From Deltaproteobacteria bacterium (GTDB taxonomy: Bacteria > Desulfobacterota > Desulfobacteria > Desulfobacterales > SURF-15): a stretch of DNA of 64,000 nt. Positions 26,983 to 46,307 of the stretch are shown here, piece by piece (within the stretch, counting starts at the first letter, position 1; every line of letters starts with the position of its first letter). Made by a program: the position numbers and the translations under genes. Below the pieces are notes generated by a model. That model searched no databases. It saw nothing but the letters and a program-made list of their open reading frames with translations, and had not been told where the DNA came from. The DNA lies in assembly GCA_019309565.1 (NCBI GenBank), contig JAFDFZ010000014.1:1-64000 (forward strand), in the 5' to 3' direction.

Positions 26983-27861
26983 ATGAACATAAGGCGAATC
27001 ACTTCATTAACGGCTCTGTTGTCTTTTACCATCATCCTGATAAGCAGCTTCATTCTCTATATAGTCCCACAAGGGCGAATCGCCTACTGGGCGGATTGGC
27101 GGCTTTGGGGGTTGAGCAAGGAACAATGGACCAACATTCACATGATAAACGGGCTGCTTTTCCTTATCTCGATCTTTCTTCATATTTATTACAACTGGAA
27201 CCCGATTATGACATATTTAAAAAACAGGGCAAAGCAACTGAAAATCTTTACCCGAGAATTCAATGTGGCACTTCTACTTACGGCTCTATTTACCATAGGA
27301 ACTTACTTCGCAATGCCGCCCTTTCAGTGGGTGATAGATTTAAGCGACACCATTAAAGAGGCTGCTGCCAAGAAATACGGCGAGCCTCCGTACGGGCATG
27401 CAGAACTGTCCTCTTTGCGAACTCTTGCCAAAAGGCAGGGATTCGATCTCATCGATGCCAAGGAGCGGCTTAAGAAAGCCGGGATACGATTCGAAAATGA
27501 AAATCAGAAGATAAAGGATGTGGCCCGCTTAAACGGGATATCCCCCCAGCAGGTATATCTTGCGATGAAGCCTGAGAGGAAGGTGAAATTAATCGCCGCA
27601 TCTCCGGCCTCTTACACTCCATTTCTATCATCGACAGGTAAAAATTCCTCTGCTGCAGACTCGGCCTTAGAGGGTCAAAAACCCATTGGGCTCGGCAAGA
27701 TGACGATCACCGAAGTTTGTGCTAAATATAATCTAAATTTACAAACGGCATTGAAGAACCTGGCAGATGCCGGCATACAAGCAACCCCCGAAGATAAGAT
27801 GAAAAAAACAGCGGAGAGACACGATACCACCCCCTTTGATCTTTTAGAGGCAATGAGGTAA
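26983..27861 (+). CDS. DUF4405 membrane protein with soluble C-terminal part
   Basis: 292-aa protein. Three hydrophobic segments in the first 125 residues carry histidines in NIHMINGLLFLISIFLHIYYNW, which resembles the b-type cytochrome-like pattern of DUF4405 proteins. Residues 125-292 are soluble and contain two related blocks (AKRQGFDLIDAKERLKKAGI and CAKYNLNLQTALKNLADAGI), an internal repeat. The AGGA site before ATG 26983 supports the start. Possibly an electron-transfer or sensor membrane protein; haem binding is inference. Confidence 0.75.
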   Translation: MNIRRITSLTALLSFTIILISSFILYIVPQGRIAYWADWRLWGLSKEQWTNIHMINGLLFLISIFLHIYYNWNPIMTYLKNRAKQLKIFTREFNVALLLTALFTIGTYFAMPPFQWVIDLSDTIKEAAAKKYGEPPYGHAELSSLRTLAKRQGFDLIDAKERLKKAGIRFENENQKIKDVARLNGISPQQVYLAMKPERKVKLIAASPASYTPFLSSTGKNSSAADSALEGQKPIGLGKMTITEVCAKYNLNLQTALKNLADAGIQATPEDKMKKTAERHDTTPFDLLEAMR

Positions 27862-29226: not shown

Positions 29227-29383
29227 ATCAACCAATCATTTCTTTCTTTTTTTCTGATATGCATTATATTTTCGCTGCTAGCGATTAAAATAGCAGGGAT
29301 AAATGAACGGTAGTTCATAGTAAAATGACAAGTTTCCATTATTGTTTTATGCTACTGTTGCATTTAACTTCCAGGCGGTAGAG

Positions 29384-30085
29384 ATGAACCCACGCCTTGA
29401 GATGTACCTCTTGCCTACTGCTATCATCGACAGTGATCATGAGTCGATCATCCAATTTGCAAGGAAAACCGTTGGTACCATAAAAGATTCGCCGGTTGAA
29501 TCGGCGGTAAAACTCTATTATGCAGTACGGGATGGAATATGGTACGATCCGTATTCACCATTCCATTTGCCGGAACACTACCGTGCCAGTGAGATTTTGA
29601 AAAAGGGCCGGGGTTACTGTGTTGCCAAGGCCACATTGCTGTGTGCTCTTGGAAGAGCATTGGACATTCCTTCCCGGGTAGGCTTTGCTACGGTTAGAAA
29701 CCATCTGGCAACCCGTCAGCTCATTGAGTATATCGGATCGGACCGATTCGTATATCACGGTTACACTGAATTTTACCTGGATGGTAAATGGGTGAAGGCA
29801 ACCCCTGCCTTTAACATAGAACTATGCAGGCGCCATCAGGTGCCGCCGCTTGATTTTAATGGTCGGGAAGATTCCATTTTTCAGCCCTATAATTTAGAGA
29901 AAAAACGATTTATGGAGTACATTGAAGATCATGGAAGTTATGCGGATATTCCGGTGAACATAATCGTTGCGGCATGGAAAAAGGAGTACGGGAAAAATAG
30001 AGTTGAGAGATGGATTGCAGCCTTTGAAGCATCTGGTGGCGAGTTGAAGCGGGACTTCGGCAGGGAGGAGGTTTTAAAAGAATAG
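29384..30085 (+). CDS. Transglutaminase-like (cysteine protease fold) protein
   Basis: 233-aa soluble protein with a transglutaminase core: cysteine C79 in GRGYCVAKATLLCALGRALG-like context (GYCVAKA seen directly) and histidine H125 in YHGYTEFYLDGKW. The usual third residue, aspartate in DPT, is replaced by TPAFN after KAT, so catalysis may be non-canonical. ATG 29384 is chosen because it begins the conserved part. Members act as peptidases, amidases or cross-linkers; no substrate is evident. It sits between the amidohydrolase and radical SAM genes. Confidence 0.8.
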   Translation: MNPRLEMYLLPTAIIDSDHESIIQFARKTVGTIKDSPVESAVKLYYAVRDGIWYDPYSPFHLPEHYRASEILKKGRGYCVAKATLLCALGRALDIPSRVGFATVRNHLATRQLIEYIGSDRFVYHGYTEFYLDGKWVKATPAFNIELCRRHQVPPLDFNGREDSIFQPYNLEKKRFMEYIEDHGSYADIPVNIIVAAWKKEYGKNRVERWIAAFEASGGELKRDFGREEVLKE

Positions 30086-30119
30086 CAACCATTCTTTTAG
30101 CCGTAAGGAGATTTTTCAT

Positions 30120-31166
30120 ATGAAAATCTCAAGGCGCCAGTTCATCAAACAATCCCTGTTGTTGGGAAGCTCGCTGTTTGTCGCCCCCGGTTGTCTCAGC
30201 GCCTCTTTTAAAGAAAAACAAAAGTGGGTGCCTGCTTATGCCATATTGGAACAACAGGGGCGACTTAAAGAGCGTATCGAGGAGGCCTATGCCATCTTCG
30301 AGGAGTGCCGGCTCTGTCCCCGTGAATGCGGTGTAAACCGGCTCAGGGGTGAGCGCGGTTTTTGCCGGGCACCGTCTGAGGTCATGGTTTACGTGGCACA
30401 ACCACACTTCGGAGAGGAGATATCGCTGGTGGGTCACGGCGGATCAGGTACGATCTTTTTTTCAAACTGCAACCTTCGCTGTGTGTTCTGTCAAAATTGG
30501 CCCATCGCCCACCGGGGCGAGGGAAAACAGATAACAGACGATGCGCTTTCAGATATGATGCTGTTTCTACAAAGAATCGGCTGCCATAATATTAATCTGG
30601 TCACCCCAACCCATGTGATGCCCAACATCCTAAATGCAACACGAATTGCATATCAAAAGGGGCTGAAGATTCCTCTTGTCTACAATACTAGCGGCTATGA
30701 ACGTGTTGAAATTGTTAAGATTTTGGACCAGATCGTTGATATTTATCTTCCGGACATGAAATACACGGATCCTGAGAAAGCGGCTTTGTACTCGGCCGAG
30801 GCATCGGATTATCCGGAAGTGACCCAAAAGGCGATCCTTGAAATGCATCGACAGGTTGGCCTGCATACCGTTGATGATGACGGTATTGCATTGAAGGGGT
30901 TGATGATACGGCATTTGGTCATGCCAAATGGCGTTGCCGGTACCGAAAAATTCGTCAAGTGGGTGGCTGAAGCTCTTCCCAAATCAACATATGTCAACAT
31001 CATGGCTCAGTATCATGTGGATTACCGGGCTTTCGAATTCCCTGAAATTGCCAGAGGAATAACAGCGGAAGAATTTTTGCAGGCCATGAAATGGGCGGAA
31101 GAATACGGGCTTACAAACCTCGATCCCCGGTCAAAAAGAATCCAGGACTTTTACTTGCGCTCTTAG
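30120..31166 (+). CDS. PflA/PflX-like radical SAM protein with twin-arginine signal
   Basis: 348-aa radical SAM protein. The cluster motif is C117-x3-C121-x2-C124 in SNCNLRCVFCQNW. A second cysteine set, C63, C66, C70 and C82 (ECRLCPREC and FCRAP), precedes it, as in PflX-like (COG1313) proteins. Unusually, the N-terminus is a Tat-type signal: S-R-R-Q-F-I-K followed by LLLGSSLFVAPGC, with a cysteine at 25 that could be lipidated. Radical SAM chemistry needs SAM and reducing power, which are cytosolic. ATG 30120 has AAGGAG 9 bases upstream. The stop abuts convergent tyrA. Confidence 0.85.
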   Translation: MKISRRQFIKQSLLLGSSLFVAPGCLSASFKEKQKWVPAYAILEQQGRLKERIEEAYAIFEECRLCPRECGVNRLRGERGFCRAPSEVMVYVAQPHFGEEISLVGHGGSGTIFFSNCNLRCVFCQNWPIAHRGEGKQITDDALSDMMLFLQRIGCHNINLVTPTHVMPNILNATRIAYQKGLKIPLVYNTSGYERVEIVKILDQIVDIYLPDMKYTDPEKAALYSAEASDYPEVTQKAILEMHRQVGLHTVDDDGIALKGLMIRHLVMPNGVAGTEKFVKWVAEALPKSTYVNIMAQYHVDYRAFEFPEIARGITAEEFLQAMKWAEEYGLTNLDPRSKRIQDFYLRS

Positions 31167-32351
31167 TTAAAACCGCTCGATCAATTTATCGATCAAGTAC
31201 GTGCTTTCCCGCATGGCTTGCTCGCTGAACGGGCCGAACCATTCAGCGATCTTCCTGAATGCCTCGCAAAAAGCATCCTTGTCCCCATTTTCTATCATTT
31301 CAAGGTTTTCATTGATGGATGCAAGATAGTCTTTCAGCAGGTTCAACCGCTTAGGGGAGGCGAAAATGATTTCCGCATAAAGCGAAGGGTCCTGGTTGAA
31401 AAGCCTGCCAACCATTCCCAGCTCCAACCGATAGATCGGGCTTGAGAATTCCAGTGTACGCTGTAAATCGACTCGTTTTCGGCAAAGAAACTGACCAAAG
31501 GCGAACGTGGCGAAATGCCGCAGGCTTTGTACGATATCCATGATCTCATCATGCTCCCGGGCGCTTGATTTCACAACTATGCTACCCCAGGACGTAAACT
31601 GGTCGATCAACCACTGGCATGCAGAGGGGTTTCTGCCTAAGGTAGCTACAATGATCTGCTTGTCCATGGTTGAGGTTGTCGGGCCGAACAGTGGATGTAA
31701 ACCGATCACCGGTCCCTGATGGGCCTTAAGCATGGCCTCCATCGGGGGGCCCTTTATGCTTGTTATATCGGCTAAGACACAGTCAGAAGAAAGATATGGT
31801 CCAAGTTTTGAAATGACATCCACGGTAGTTTCAATGGGCACACAGATCAGAGCCAGGTTAGCACCGCTGCACAGCTCTTTTGCCCGCTGCCAATCTTTAC
31901 GATCCAGTACCCGGACGCGATAGGCCGCATCCTGAAACCAACGACGAAAATATCGCCCCATGCTTCCGTTGCCTCCGACAATCAGCACGGTCGATCCAGC
32001 TCGAATACCCTTTCCTGCCATGTAGGCAGCTTGCTCGGTTCTTGATTTACGAAGGATCAATCTGAAAAGCTCTTCCAGATAATCCGGATCGAGCCCGGCC
32101 TTTCGGGCTTGATCCCGTCTTTGCGTTATGAGATTTTCCTCTCTGGCCGGATGGTAGACCGGCAATTGATGAGCTTTTTTCAGAGCCACTACCTGTTCAA
32201 TCTTTTTCTGCCGCTCGATCAGCAGAGAGACGATCTTCTGATCAATGGCATCGACGTCATAGCGCAGGCGCTTAAGTTTTTTTTCAGCACTTTCTTCGGC
32301 CATGTGCACGGGGGATTTGGAATGTTTTTGTTTTGTTTCCATTGTTATCAT
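31167..32351 (-). CDS. tyrA: Chorismate mutase-prephenate dehydrogenase (TyrA)
   Basis: 394-aa bifunctional enzyme of tyrosine biosynthesis. About residues 25-115 form an AroQ-type chorismate mutase (LRYDVDAIDQKIVSLLIERQ, with catalytic-side lysine in VVALKKAH). From about 120 a prephenate dehydrogenase follows, with VLIVGGNGSMGRYF as the NAD site and GLHPLFGPTTSTMDKQII. This domain order matches the E. coli T-protein. Start ATG 32351 or 32342; neither has a strong ribosome site. It ends against the convergent radical SAM gene with no intergenic gap. Confidence 0.9.
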   Translation of the reverse strand: MITMETKQKHSKSPVHMAEESAEKKLKRLRYDVDAIDQKIVSLLIERQKKIEQVVALKKAHQLPVYHPAREENLITQRRDQARKAGLDPDYLEELFRLILRKSRTEQAAYMAGKGIRAGSTVLIVGGNGSMGRYFRRWFQDAAYRVRVLDRKDWQRAKELCSGANLALICVPIETTVDVISKLGPYLSSDCVLADITSIKGPPMEAMLKAHQGPVIGLHPLFGPTTSTMDKQIIVATLGRNPSACQWLIDQFTSWGSIVVKSSAREHDEIMDIVQSLRHFATFAFGQFLCRKRVDLQRTLEFSSPIYRLELGMVGRLFNQDPSLYAEIIFASPKRLNLLKDYLASINENLEMIENGDKDAFCEAFRKIAEWFGPFSEQAMRESTYLIDKLIERF

Positions 32352-44783: not shown

Positions 44784-46307
44784 CTATGAATCTGACTGGT
44801 AGTGATGAAGGATTGCCTCACACAGCCCGGCGATAGTATAAGATTTAGCAGTGATGTGCACTTCCAATTCAAGGCAGCGGGCCGTTTCGGAAGTAACGGG
44901 GCCAATGCTGGCGATGGTGACGGATTTTAACAAATCTTTGAAACCATCTTTCGGCAACAACGCCCTGAAGTTTTTTACCGTGGACGAACTGGTAAAGGTA
45001 ATAAGATCGATTGTGCCCGATTTTAATCGATCCAGCAGCAACTCGGCTCCATCCCGTACCATTTCTGTTTGATAAGCCGCCACTTCGTCGACTAGTGCAC
45101 CCATTTTAGTCAATTCTACGGGTAAAACAGGCCTGGCTTCTTTTGCCCGCGGAAGAAGTATTCTTTTCCCGTTTATCTCTTCGTGTCGAAACGCTTCTAT
45201 GATCGACTCGGCACGATAGGTCTCGGGCAAGACATCGGTCTTTAAGCCGAAATCTAAAAGCCGTCCTGCTGTGGACGGTCCGATACAGGCTGTTCGAACA
45301 TGCCCGAATACTCGCATATCCTTGCCTTTTTCAAATAGCCGTCGGAAAAAATAGCTGACTCCGTTAACGCTGGTAAAAACAAGCCAGTCATATTCTGAAA
45401 GCATCTCTATGGAAGAGTCAAGCGGGGTCCAATCATCCGGAGGGACAACCTTGATCGTGGGGAACTCGATACATTCCGCACCCAGCTCAAACAACGCCGA
45501 CACCAGCTCGCTTGCCTGTTCCCTGGCACGGGTTACCACTATTCTCTTTCCCAGAAGCGGCCGGTTTTCAAACCATTTTAACTCTTCACGCAGGCTGACC
45601 ACCTGTCCCACGACGATGATTGCAGGCGGTCTCATGCCGGCGTCATTTACCTGTTTCAAAATGGTACCAAGGGTTCCGGTAATGGTAAACTGGGCCGGTG
45701 TGGTGCCCCATTGGATGATGGCAACCGGGGTTTGCGGTGACATGCCCTGATCAATGAGCCGAGCCACGATGTGGGAGAGGTTTTTGATCCCCATTAAAAA
45801 CACAATGGTTCCAATACCCTTTGCCAGAGCGTTCCAATCGATGCTGGAGCTGGCTTTTCCCGGGGCTTCATGTCCTGTAACAAAAGCAACCGTAGATGTG
45901 AACCGCCGGTGAGTCAGTGGAATGCCTGCATAGGCCGAAGCGGCAATGGCGGAAGTCACCCCCGGCACCACTTCATAAGCAATTCCAGCTTTGATAAGCT
46001 CCTGTGCCTCCTCACCGCCCCGGCCGAAGATAAACGGATCTCCACCTTTAAGCCGTGCTACACACAGCCCTTTCTTGGCCTTTTCCAAAAGCAAGGCATT
46101 GATGCGTTTCTGAGATATGGTGTGCATGCCGCCTTTTTTCCCGACATAGATACATTCAGCCTCCGCACGGGCATGTTTCAAAATAGCTGACGGGATAAGA
46201 TAGTCGTAGATAATCACATCGGCCTTCTTGATACAGTCCAGTGCTTTGACAGTGATCAACCCGGGATCTCCGGGGCCTGCTCCAATGAGATACACTTTAC
46301 CGTTCAT
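44784..46307 (-). CDS. cobA-hemD: Uroporphyrinogen-III C-methyltransferase / uroporphyrinogen-III synthase fusion (CobA-HemD)
   Basis: 507-aa fusion. Residues 1-245 are SUMT: VYLIGAGPGDPGLITVKAL, YVGKKGGMH, LKGGDPFIFGRGGEE and EVVPGVTSAIAA. Residues 255-507 are the less conserved HemD (GKRIVVTRAREQASELVS, VFTSVNGVSYFF). The pair makes and methylates uroporphyrinogen III for sirohaem, cobalamin and the alternative haem route, usual in sulfate reducers. Overlaps hemC by 4 bp (ATGA). Confidence 0.95.
   Translation of the reverse strand: MNGKVYLIGAGPGDPGLITVKALDCIKKADVIIYDYLIPSAILKHARAEAECIYVGKKGGMHTISQKRINALLLEKAKKGLCVARLKGGDPFIFGRGGEEAQELIKAGIAYEVVPGVTSAIAASAYAGIPLTHRRFTSTVAFVTGHEAPGKASSSIDWNALAKGIGTIVFLMGIKNLSHIVARLIDQGMSPQTPVAIIQWGTTPAQFTITGTLGTILKQVNDAGMRPPAIIVVGQVVSLREELKWFENRPLLGKRIVVTRAREQASELVSALFELGAECIEFPTIKVVPPDDWTPLDSSIEMLSEYDWLVFTSVNGVSYFFRRLFEKGKDMRVFGHVRTACIGPSTAGRLLDFGLKTDVLPETYRAESIIEAFRHEEINGKRILLPRAKEARPVLPVELTKMGALVDEVAAYQTEMVRDGAELLLDRLKSGTIDLITFTSSSTVKNFRALLPKDGFKDLLKSVTIASIGPVTSETARCLELEVHITAKSYTIAGLCEAILHHYQSDS

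What the first reader, a model, noticed from the sequence alone, without database searches (positions are those of the whole stretch)
30120..31166. Radical SAM protein that carries a twin-arginine export signal
The N-terminus has SRRQFIK and a hydrophobic stretch ending in a possible lipidation cysteine, followed by an intact CxxxCxxC cluster motif and a second cysteine set. Tat exports folded Fe-S proteins, but radical SAM chemistry needs SAM and low-potential electrons, which are not expected outside the cytoplasm. Either the signal tethers rather than exports, or the protein has a different role.
Basis: partly seen in the sequence, partly recalled or inferred. Interest (0 to 1): 0.6.

Follow-up and report, generated by a model that had tools for sequence, protein, structure and literature searches.

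The report
Exported radical SAM enzyme and partners
A type of enzyme normally confined to the cell interior (radical SAM) carries a real, widely conserved export signal here, and across many bacterial phyla it sits with a matching exported set of partner proteins, which suggests that radical SAM chemistry may run outside the cytoplasm, something for which I know of no precedent.

Summary
The gene (30120-31166) encodes a PflX/COG1313-type radical SAM protein with intact CxxxCxxC and a genuine Tat signal: S4-R-R-Q-F-I-K, h-region, and a Shine-Dalgarno before the ATG.

The signal is not a one-off. About 100 homologues share it and form one 100%-supported branch. Signal-less cytosolic paralogues, one of them in this genome, form the other branch.

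Outside the window the case grows. Tat-PflX is usually encoded tail-to-tail with a second Tat-signalled radical SAM enzyme, the AmmeMemoRadiSam rSAM (TIGR04337). That enzyme travels with a Sec-signalled Memo or Memo-AMMECR1 protein and with a 14-TM membrane protein whose spermidine-synthase-like domain is predicted to be extracytoplasmic. Exported rSAM and this membrane protein co-occur at p ~ 1e-47. This genome carries the exported set and a cytosolic set (one AMMECR1 only, no signal).

Export is supported further by lipobox signals in monoderm lineages, by a c-haem motif fused to some of the second enzymes, and by retention of all cluster cysteines.

Most likely this is an extracytoplasmic radical SAM system. 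The substrate, SAM supply and electron source are unproven; I propose the membrane protein as SAM supplier.

The parts
30120..31166 (+). Tat-signalled PflX/COG1313-type radical SAM protein, 348 aa (called rSAM1 here)
   Evidence: ORF; Pfam Radical_SAM 46.8 bits; AF2 model pLDDT 90.9 whose best PDB match is pyruvate formate-lyase activating enzyme
30104..30110 (+). Shine-Dalgarno TAAGGAG, 9 nt before the ATG
   Evidence: read from sequence
30120..30203 (+). Tat signal peptide, residues 1-28 (SRRQFIK 30129-30149; h-region 30150-30191; predicted SPase I site LSA28|S29)
   Evidence: conserved R5 R6 F8 in A1; 98 auto-scored plus 7 hand-read homologues with signal against 28 cytosolic-clade homologues without
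30192..30194 (+).
30306..30365 (+). N-terminal four-Cys set C63-x2-C66-x3-C70-x11-C82 (likely auxiliary cluster)
   Evidence: invariant in exported and cytosolic clades
30468..30491 (+). radical SAM motif C117xxxC121xxC124
   Evidence: invariant in both clades
31020..31022 (+). D301: position of a Cys (PCG) invariant in cytosolic PflX and lost in the exported clade
29342..30085 (+). transglutaminase-like protein 34 bp upstream, same strand; not a conserved neighbour in other loci, probably not part of the system
   Evidence: Pfam Transglut_core 70 bits; neighbour clustering

Best explanation
The gene encodes the PflX-type component of an extracytoplasmic radical SAM system. The apoprotein acquires its [4Fe-4S] clusters and folds in the cytoplasm, is exported by Tat, and works on the outer side of the inner membrane (soluble periplasmic or membrane-held in Desulfobacterota; lipidated in many other lineages). 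There it acts with a second Tat-exported radical SAM enzyme of the AmmeMemoRadiSam type, a Sec-exported Memo or Memo-AMMECR1 protein, and a 14-TM membrane protein whose spermidine-synthase-like domain faces outward. Shown by sequence: conserved signals, processing-site types, gene linkage, intact cluster ligands, one exported branch for each of the two enzymes, coexisting cytosolic paralogues. Predicted by model: topology of the membrane protein, PFL-activase-like fold. Inferred only: that the enzymes run SAM chemistry outside, that the 14-TM protein presents or exports SAM or another adenosyl nucleotide, that electrons come from periplasmic c-type cytochromes (some of the partner rSAMs have a fused CxxCH), and that the substrate is a peptide, cofactor or envelope component.
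For: (1) Tat signal confined to one branch: 105 exported (98 auto-scored) against 28 cytosolic rSAM1; the label changes once on a tree of 95 of them, shuffles need 24 changes, branch support 100. (2) Phylum spread among named genomes: Thermodesulfobacteriota, Spirochaetota, Planctomycetota, Kiritimatiellae/Verrucomicrobiota, Chloroflexota, Bacillota, Gemmatimonadota, Acidobacteriota. (3) Processing sites switch between A-x-A and lipobox; rSAM2 lipobox-type Cys in 6/6 monoderm against 2/46 diderm loci. (4) Linkage: Tat-rSAM2 adjacent in 57 of 80 named rSAM1 loci, 56 of them on the opposite strand. (5) Membrane partner: 101 of 137 hits lie beside an exported rSAM; co-occurrence 119/19/10/143 over 291 genomes, p = 7e-48; rSAM1 alone 27/1/102/161, p = 9e-10. 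(6) Memo-AMMECR1 fusions (Pfam both) with N-terminal Sec-like signals in operon with them. (7) Predicted topology N-in/C-in, outward SpeE domain: inside loops 0.16-0.28 K+R per residue, outside loops 0-0.085, same alternation in 15 further homologues. (8) CxxCH between signal and catalytic domain in five distinct rSAM2 proteins of a 30-protein sample. (9) Cytosolic paralogues of rSAM1, rSAM2 and Memo in this genome, plus TatC. (10) All cluster Cys kept in the exported clade.
Against: No experiment; no SignalP/TatP run was possible. The Tat model alone is below its cut-off for this sequence. SAM and a strong reductant have no known route to the periplasm. A membrane partner and an exported rSAM2 exist in this genome but not next to rSAM1 (different contigs). 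AMMECR1 in this genome is a single copy without a signal, and one operon (L226) has a separate AMMECR1 without an obvious signal. The CxxCH motif is a minority feature and short enough that single cases could be chance. 'Exported-type' rSAM2 in the class survey was assigned by score; N-termini were read for 30 of them. The window genome is a metagenome bin with 7.9% estimated contamination.
Confidence: 0.72

Rival explanations
1. The proteins are exported but have given up radical chemistry: the [4Fe-4S] clusters serve as electron carriers or redox/metal sensors in the periplasm.
For: SAM and low-potential electrons are not known there; exported PflX has lost one Cys that is invariant in the cytosolic clade and swapped several other positions.
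Against: CxxxCxxC, the upstream four-Cys set and the VTPxH loop stay invariant over 105 sequences; two separate radical SAM families were exported together, with the accessory proteins of the cytosolic pathway and a partner of adenosyl-nucleotide fold.
Confidence: 0.15
2. The signal only tethers: the protein stays on the cytoplasmic face with an uncleaved N-terminal helix and works as an ordinary radical SAM enzyme.
For: Solves the SAM and electron problem; the two Bacillota rSAM1 sequences have RK and no lipobox or clear cleavage site, and this protein's own cleavage site is not strong.
Against: Lipobox-type and A-x-A-like ends at the right distance, with the lipobox tracking monoderm lineages in rSAM2; Sec signal on Memo-AMMECR1; outward-facing membrane partner; c-haem motif in some rSAM2, which needs the outside for haem attachment.
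Confidence: 0.1
3. The enzyme acts in the cytoplasm first, modifying or loading a partner or cofactor, and is exported afterwards with a bound product.
For: Tat can carry folded proteins with cofactor already inserted; no periplasmic SAM route is known.
Against: Does not explain a Sec-exported Memo-AMMECR1, which crosses unfolded, or the outward SpeE-like domain.
Confidence: 0.08

Closest known systems
PflX / COG1313 radical SAM proteins (cytosolic, function unknown)
   Same: Whole domain, four-Cys set plus CxxxCxxC; about 45-54% identity to cytosolic members; a cytosolic copy in the same genome (48%). The COG name is from my own knowledge; no NCBIfam equivalog fits
   Different: Tat signal; loss of the cytosolic PCG Cys; separate 100%-supported branch
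AmmeMemoRadiSam system (TIGR04336 Memo, TIGR04337 rSAM, AMMECR1; function unknown)
   Same: Partner rSAM2 scores 328-370 bits against a cut-off of 220, Memo 289 against 26; AMMECR1 by Pfam
   Different: Here rSAM carries a Tat signal and Memo(-AMMECR1) a Sec signal, with a membrane SpeE-like protein; the window protein itself is not a TIGR04337 member (26 bits)
Pyruvate formate-lyase activating enzyme (PflA)
   Same: Best fold match of the model (3c8f/8fo0, TM-score 0.71-0.72 by target)
   Different: 14% identity, extra N-terminal four-Cys domain, exported
Spermidine synthase / fused MFS-SpdSyn proteins (partner)
   Same: SpeE fold (1uir, E = 5e-11); over the MFS_SpdSyn cut-off
   Different: Acid of the GGG(D/E)G motif, which from my own knowledge binds decarboxylated SAM, missing in 31 of 35 parsed sequences; 7+7 TM; domain predicted outside

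Membership tests
Radical SAM superfamily | CxxxCxxC cluster motif in the Radical_SAM fold | tested here: met
   Pfam PF04055 46.8 bits (cut-off 29.5), motif invariant, PflA-like fold
Radical SAM superfamily | Binds and reductively cleaves SAM | not testable with these tools
   needs biochemistry
PflX/COG1313 | Four-Cys N-terminal set plus rSAM domain homologous to cytosolic members | tested here: met
   76 positions invariant in both clades; COG membership itself was not searched, no COG library was on hand
Tat substrates | N-terminal twin-arginine motif, h-region, processing site, conserved in homologues | tested here: met
   TatC in genome
Tat substrates | RR-dependent export | not testable with these tools
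   needs a reporter experiment
Tat lipoproteins | Lipobox [LVI]-x-[AG]-C | tested here: not met
   APGC with Pro at -2; Cys absent in most close relatives, present in other lineages
AmmeMemoRadiSam rSAM (TIGR04337) | score at or above 220 bits | tested here: not met
   window protein 26 bits; the partner in this genome scores 370.5
Glycyl-radical enzyme activases (TIGR02493/02494) | score above the curated cut-offs | tested here: not met
   18.9 and 19.2 bits against 231.75 and 174.35
Spermidine synthase, for the membrane partner | acid of GGG(D/E)G and DP catalytic motif | tested here: not met
   acid absent in 31 of 35 parsed, DP motif degenerate in several

The most novel reading that the evidence does not exclude
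Radical SAM chemistry runs in the periplasm (or on the outer cell surface of monoderms) of many anaerobes, with a dedicated 14-TM SpeE-like protein that exports or presents SAM (or another adenosyl nucleotide) to two Tat-exported radical SAM enzymes, and with c-type haem as the electron entry: an extracytoplasmic copy of the AmmeMemoRadiSam/PflX pathway.
Probability: 0.35. Interest if true: 0.93.

Novelty: new variant of a known kind. Interest (0 to 1): 0.77.

Why it matters
As far as I know every characterised radical SAM enzyme works inside the cell, because SAM and low-potential electrons are there; full-text searches for periplasmic, exported or secreted radical SAM enzymes returned nothing. 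An exported pair of radical SAM enzymes with exported accessory proteins would mean an unknown route for SAM and electrons across the membrane and an unknown chemistry on envelope molecules. It also gives a handle on the AmmeMemoRadiSam proteins (related to human MEMO1 and AMMECR1, from my own knowledge), whose function I do not know to be established: the membrane partner and the two parallel sets in one cell make the question testable.

Tried and rejected
Start downstream of the signal: rejected (Shine-Dalgarno at 30104-30110; next ATG is codon 89; GTG at codon 37 has no Shine-Dalgarno and is not conserved). Lipoprotein reading for this protein: weak, not adopted. Upstream transglutaminase gene as partner: no recurrence in other loci. 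Apparent antisense members of the PflX cluster looked at first like shadow ORFs but turned out to be a real second gene, Tat-rSAM2. Glycyl-radical activase membership: scores far below cut-offs. 'MFS 6+6 transporter with a cytosolic SpeE domain' for the partner: first guess, rejected by 7+7 helices and the charge pattern. Lipobox against monoderm for rSAM1: non-significant with a strict motif (p = 1), p = 0.03 with a relaxed one, so I rely on rSAM2 (strict 6e-5, relaxed 1.4e-6). Papers on COG1313, AmmeMemoRadiSam or exported radical SAM: none informative.

Full report
WHAT WAS CHECKED. The ORF at 30120-31166 (+) is real, 348 aa, with a Shine-Dalgarno (TAAGGAG, 30104-30110) 9 nt before the ATG. 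The N-terminus MKISRRQFIKQSLLLGSSLFVAPGCLSASFKEK has a twin-arginine motif and an uncharged h-region. Pfam finds Radical_SAM (46.8 bits). No NCBIfam equivalog reaches its cut-off; from my own knowledge the sequence is of the PflX/COG1313 kind. Its lipidation cysteine, C25, has Pro at -2 and is absent from most close relatives, which end in A-x-A-like sites; LSA28|S29 fits this protein.

IS THE SIGNAL REAL. The TAT_signal_seq model alone is sub-threshold (12.3 against 16.7 bits), so I looked at homologues. A genome survey and a scan of named genomes gave 137 rSAM1 sequences. With an explicit rule (twin basic pair, hydrophobic residue two on, uncharged stretch, start codon in range) 98 carry a signal; the rule missed RR signals in L015, L046/L129 (the same protein), L054, L055, L059, L061 and L062, which were read by eye; one (L131) is cut by a contig end; 28 have none and start just before the four-Cys set. 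R5, R6 and F8 are >=90% conserved in a 40-sequence alignment. On a tree of 95 of these the signal-bearing and signal-less sequences are the two sides of one branch (SH-aLRT 100; one change against 24 in shuffles; quick tree, the careful search did not finish). Named hosts include Thermodesulfobacteriota, Spirochaetota, Planctomycetota, Kiritimatiellae, Chloroflexota, Bacillota and Gemmatimonadota; most are metagenome bins, so single host labels may be wrong.

A CYTOSOLIC TWIN. This genome has a signal-less PflX 48% identical to the window protein (L010). So the exported copy is a second, specialised paralogue. In the exported clade all eight cluster or conserved cysteines are kept (C63, C66, C70, C82, C117, C121, C124, C155), but a Cys invariant in the cytosolic clade (PCG) is replaced (D301 here), and a few other positions distinguish the clades. 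That looks like a retained cluster scaffold with a changed substrate site (inference).

THE PARTNERS. In 57 of 80 named loci a second radical SAM gene lies beside the first; 56 of these are on the opposite strand, most within 200 bp, usually tail-to-tail. It belongs to TIGR04337, the AmmeMemoRadiSam radical SAM enzyme (328-344 bits in sampled loci, cut-off 220) and also carries a (K/R)R-x-F signal. Of 30 rSAM2 loci from the class survey, nearly all show a twin-arginine signal in the stretch read; L201 shows SRRQF on full reading, and in L211 the signal is not clear. In many other genomes this gene stands in an operon with a Memo homologue fused to AMMECR1 (Pfam both) that begins with a Sec-type signal, and with a ~700-820 aa membrane protein with a spermidine-synthase-like domain (PF01564). 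In the window's own genome the exported rSAM2 (L177 9382-10554, 370.5 bits) lies directly downstream of a Memo homologue with a Sec signal (L177 10571-11512), and the membrane protein is L178 8497-10815; signal-less rSAM2 (apparently split over contigs L179 and L180) and Memo (L181) are present as well. Only one AMMECR1 was found, without a signal.

STATISTICS OF LINKAGE. Over 291 genomes of the class, exported rSAM (either kind) and the membrane protein co-occur in 119, with 19 and 10 discordant and 143 without either (Fisher p = 7e-48). For exported PflX alone: 27/1/102/161, p = 9e-10. 101 of 137 membrane-protein hits lie within 1.5 kb of an exported rSAM gene, 90 of the 91 rSAM2 neighbours on the same strand; of 15 weaker, mostly cytosolic-type rSAM2 hits one is within 6 kb. 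These counts treat related genomes as independent, and exported-type rSAM2 was assigned by score (E <= 1e-98), so the p-values are optimistic; adjacency across distant lineages is the sturdier point.

WHICH SIDE OF THE MEMBRANE. (i) Signal ends are of SPase I type in Desulfobacterota and of lipobox type in many other lineages; for rSAM2 a lipobox-type Cys is found in 6 of 6 Chloroflexota/Bacillota loci and 2 of 46 others (p = 1.4e-6; strict motif 4/6 against 0/45, p = 6e-5). Lipobox and SPase I sites are used on the outer face. For rSAM1 the same test is weak (p = 0.03 relaxed, 1 strict). (ii) Five distinct rSAM2 proteins of the 30-locus sample have CxxCH between the signal region and the catalytic domain (L188, L191, L201, L207, L211), and haem is attached to such motifs only outside the cytoplasm. 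(iii) The AF2 model of the membrane partner (pLDDT 89, pTM 0.89) has 7 helices, the SpeE-like domain, then 7 helices. K+R per residue is 0.16-0.28 in loops predicted inside and 0-0.085 in loops predicted outside, alternating without exception over 24 sequences and again over 15 others (0.12-0.26 against 0.005-0.085), which puts the SpeE-like domain outside. (iv) TatC is present in this genome.

MECHANISM. Best reading: an extracytoplasmic radical SAM system. Cluster assembly and folding inside, Tat export, activity outside together with rSAM2, Memo/AMMECR1 and the membrane protein. The SpeE-like domain keeps the ribose-binding acid region (DYxELD) and adenine-side DG motif but has lost, in 31 of 35 parsed sequences, the acid that in spermidine synthases binds the decarboxylated SAM amine (the role of these residues is from my own knowledge). 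A protein that may bind an adenosyl nucleotide on the outside and has 14 TM helices is a natural candidate to deliver SAM, but neither binding nor transport is shown. The fold of the window protein is closest to PFL activase, solved with SAM and peptide (TM-score 0.72), which points to a peptide or protein substrate, again an inference.

LITERATURE. Searches of the held papers for exported, periplasmic, secreted or lipoprotein radical SAM enzymes, for COG1313 and for AmmeMemoRadiSam gave nothing on the subject. Subscription journals are not held, so absence is weak evidence.

VERDICT. Observation confirmed with two corrections. Export is well supported by comparative evidence; activity outside is plausible and unproven. 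New variant of known families (PflX and AmmeMemoRadiSam), of high interest because most of the set appears to have been moved out of the cytoplasm.

Noticed in passing
L188, L191/L228 (7505-8737), L201, L207, L211: TIGR04337-type radical SAM proteins with a CxxCH c-haem motif between the signal region and the first Cys set; a fused haem on a radical SAM enzyme is itself unusual.
   Followed up: partly
L222 7043-11856, L221 434-5245, L235 5893-10650, L228 7505-12482: Operons of Sec-signalled Memo-AMMECR1 fusion, 14-TM SpeE-like membrane protein and Tat radical SAM enzyme, i.e. an exported AmmeMemoRadiSam system, widespread in the class.
   Followed up: yes
L178 8497-10815 and 38 homologues: Membrane spermidine-synthase-like protein, 7 TM + SpeE-like domain + 7 TM, domain predicted extracytoplasmic; GGG(D/E)G acid mostly lost, so probably not a spermidine synthase.
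   Followed up: partly
26983-27861: DUF4405 membrane protein with a soluble C-terminal part of repeated short helical units (weak HTH_23/HTH_28 hits).
   Followed up: no
29342-30085: Transglutaminase-like protein ending 34 bp before the radical SAM gene, same strand; no signal seen and not conserved as neighbour.
   Followed up: partly
31167-32351: Bifunctional chorismate mutase/prephenate dehydrogenase, convergent, its stop codon abutting that of the radical SAM gene with no intergenic base.
   Followed up: no
44784-46307: Protein that looks like a fused uroporphyrinogen methyltransferase (CobA) and uroporphyrinogen-III synthase (HemD), read from sequence only.
   Followed up: no
L232 7348-12017: Tat radical SAM gene, SpeE-like membrane gene and a following lipoprotein-like gene with one CxxCH motif on one strand; possible electron-donor partner.
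   Followed up: no
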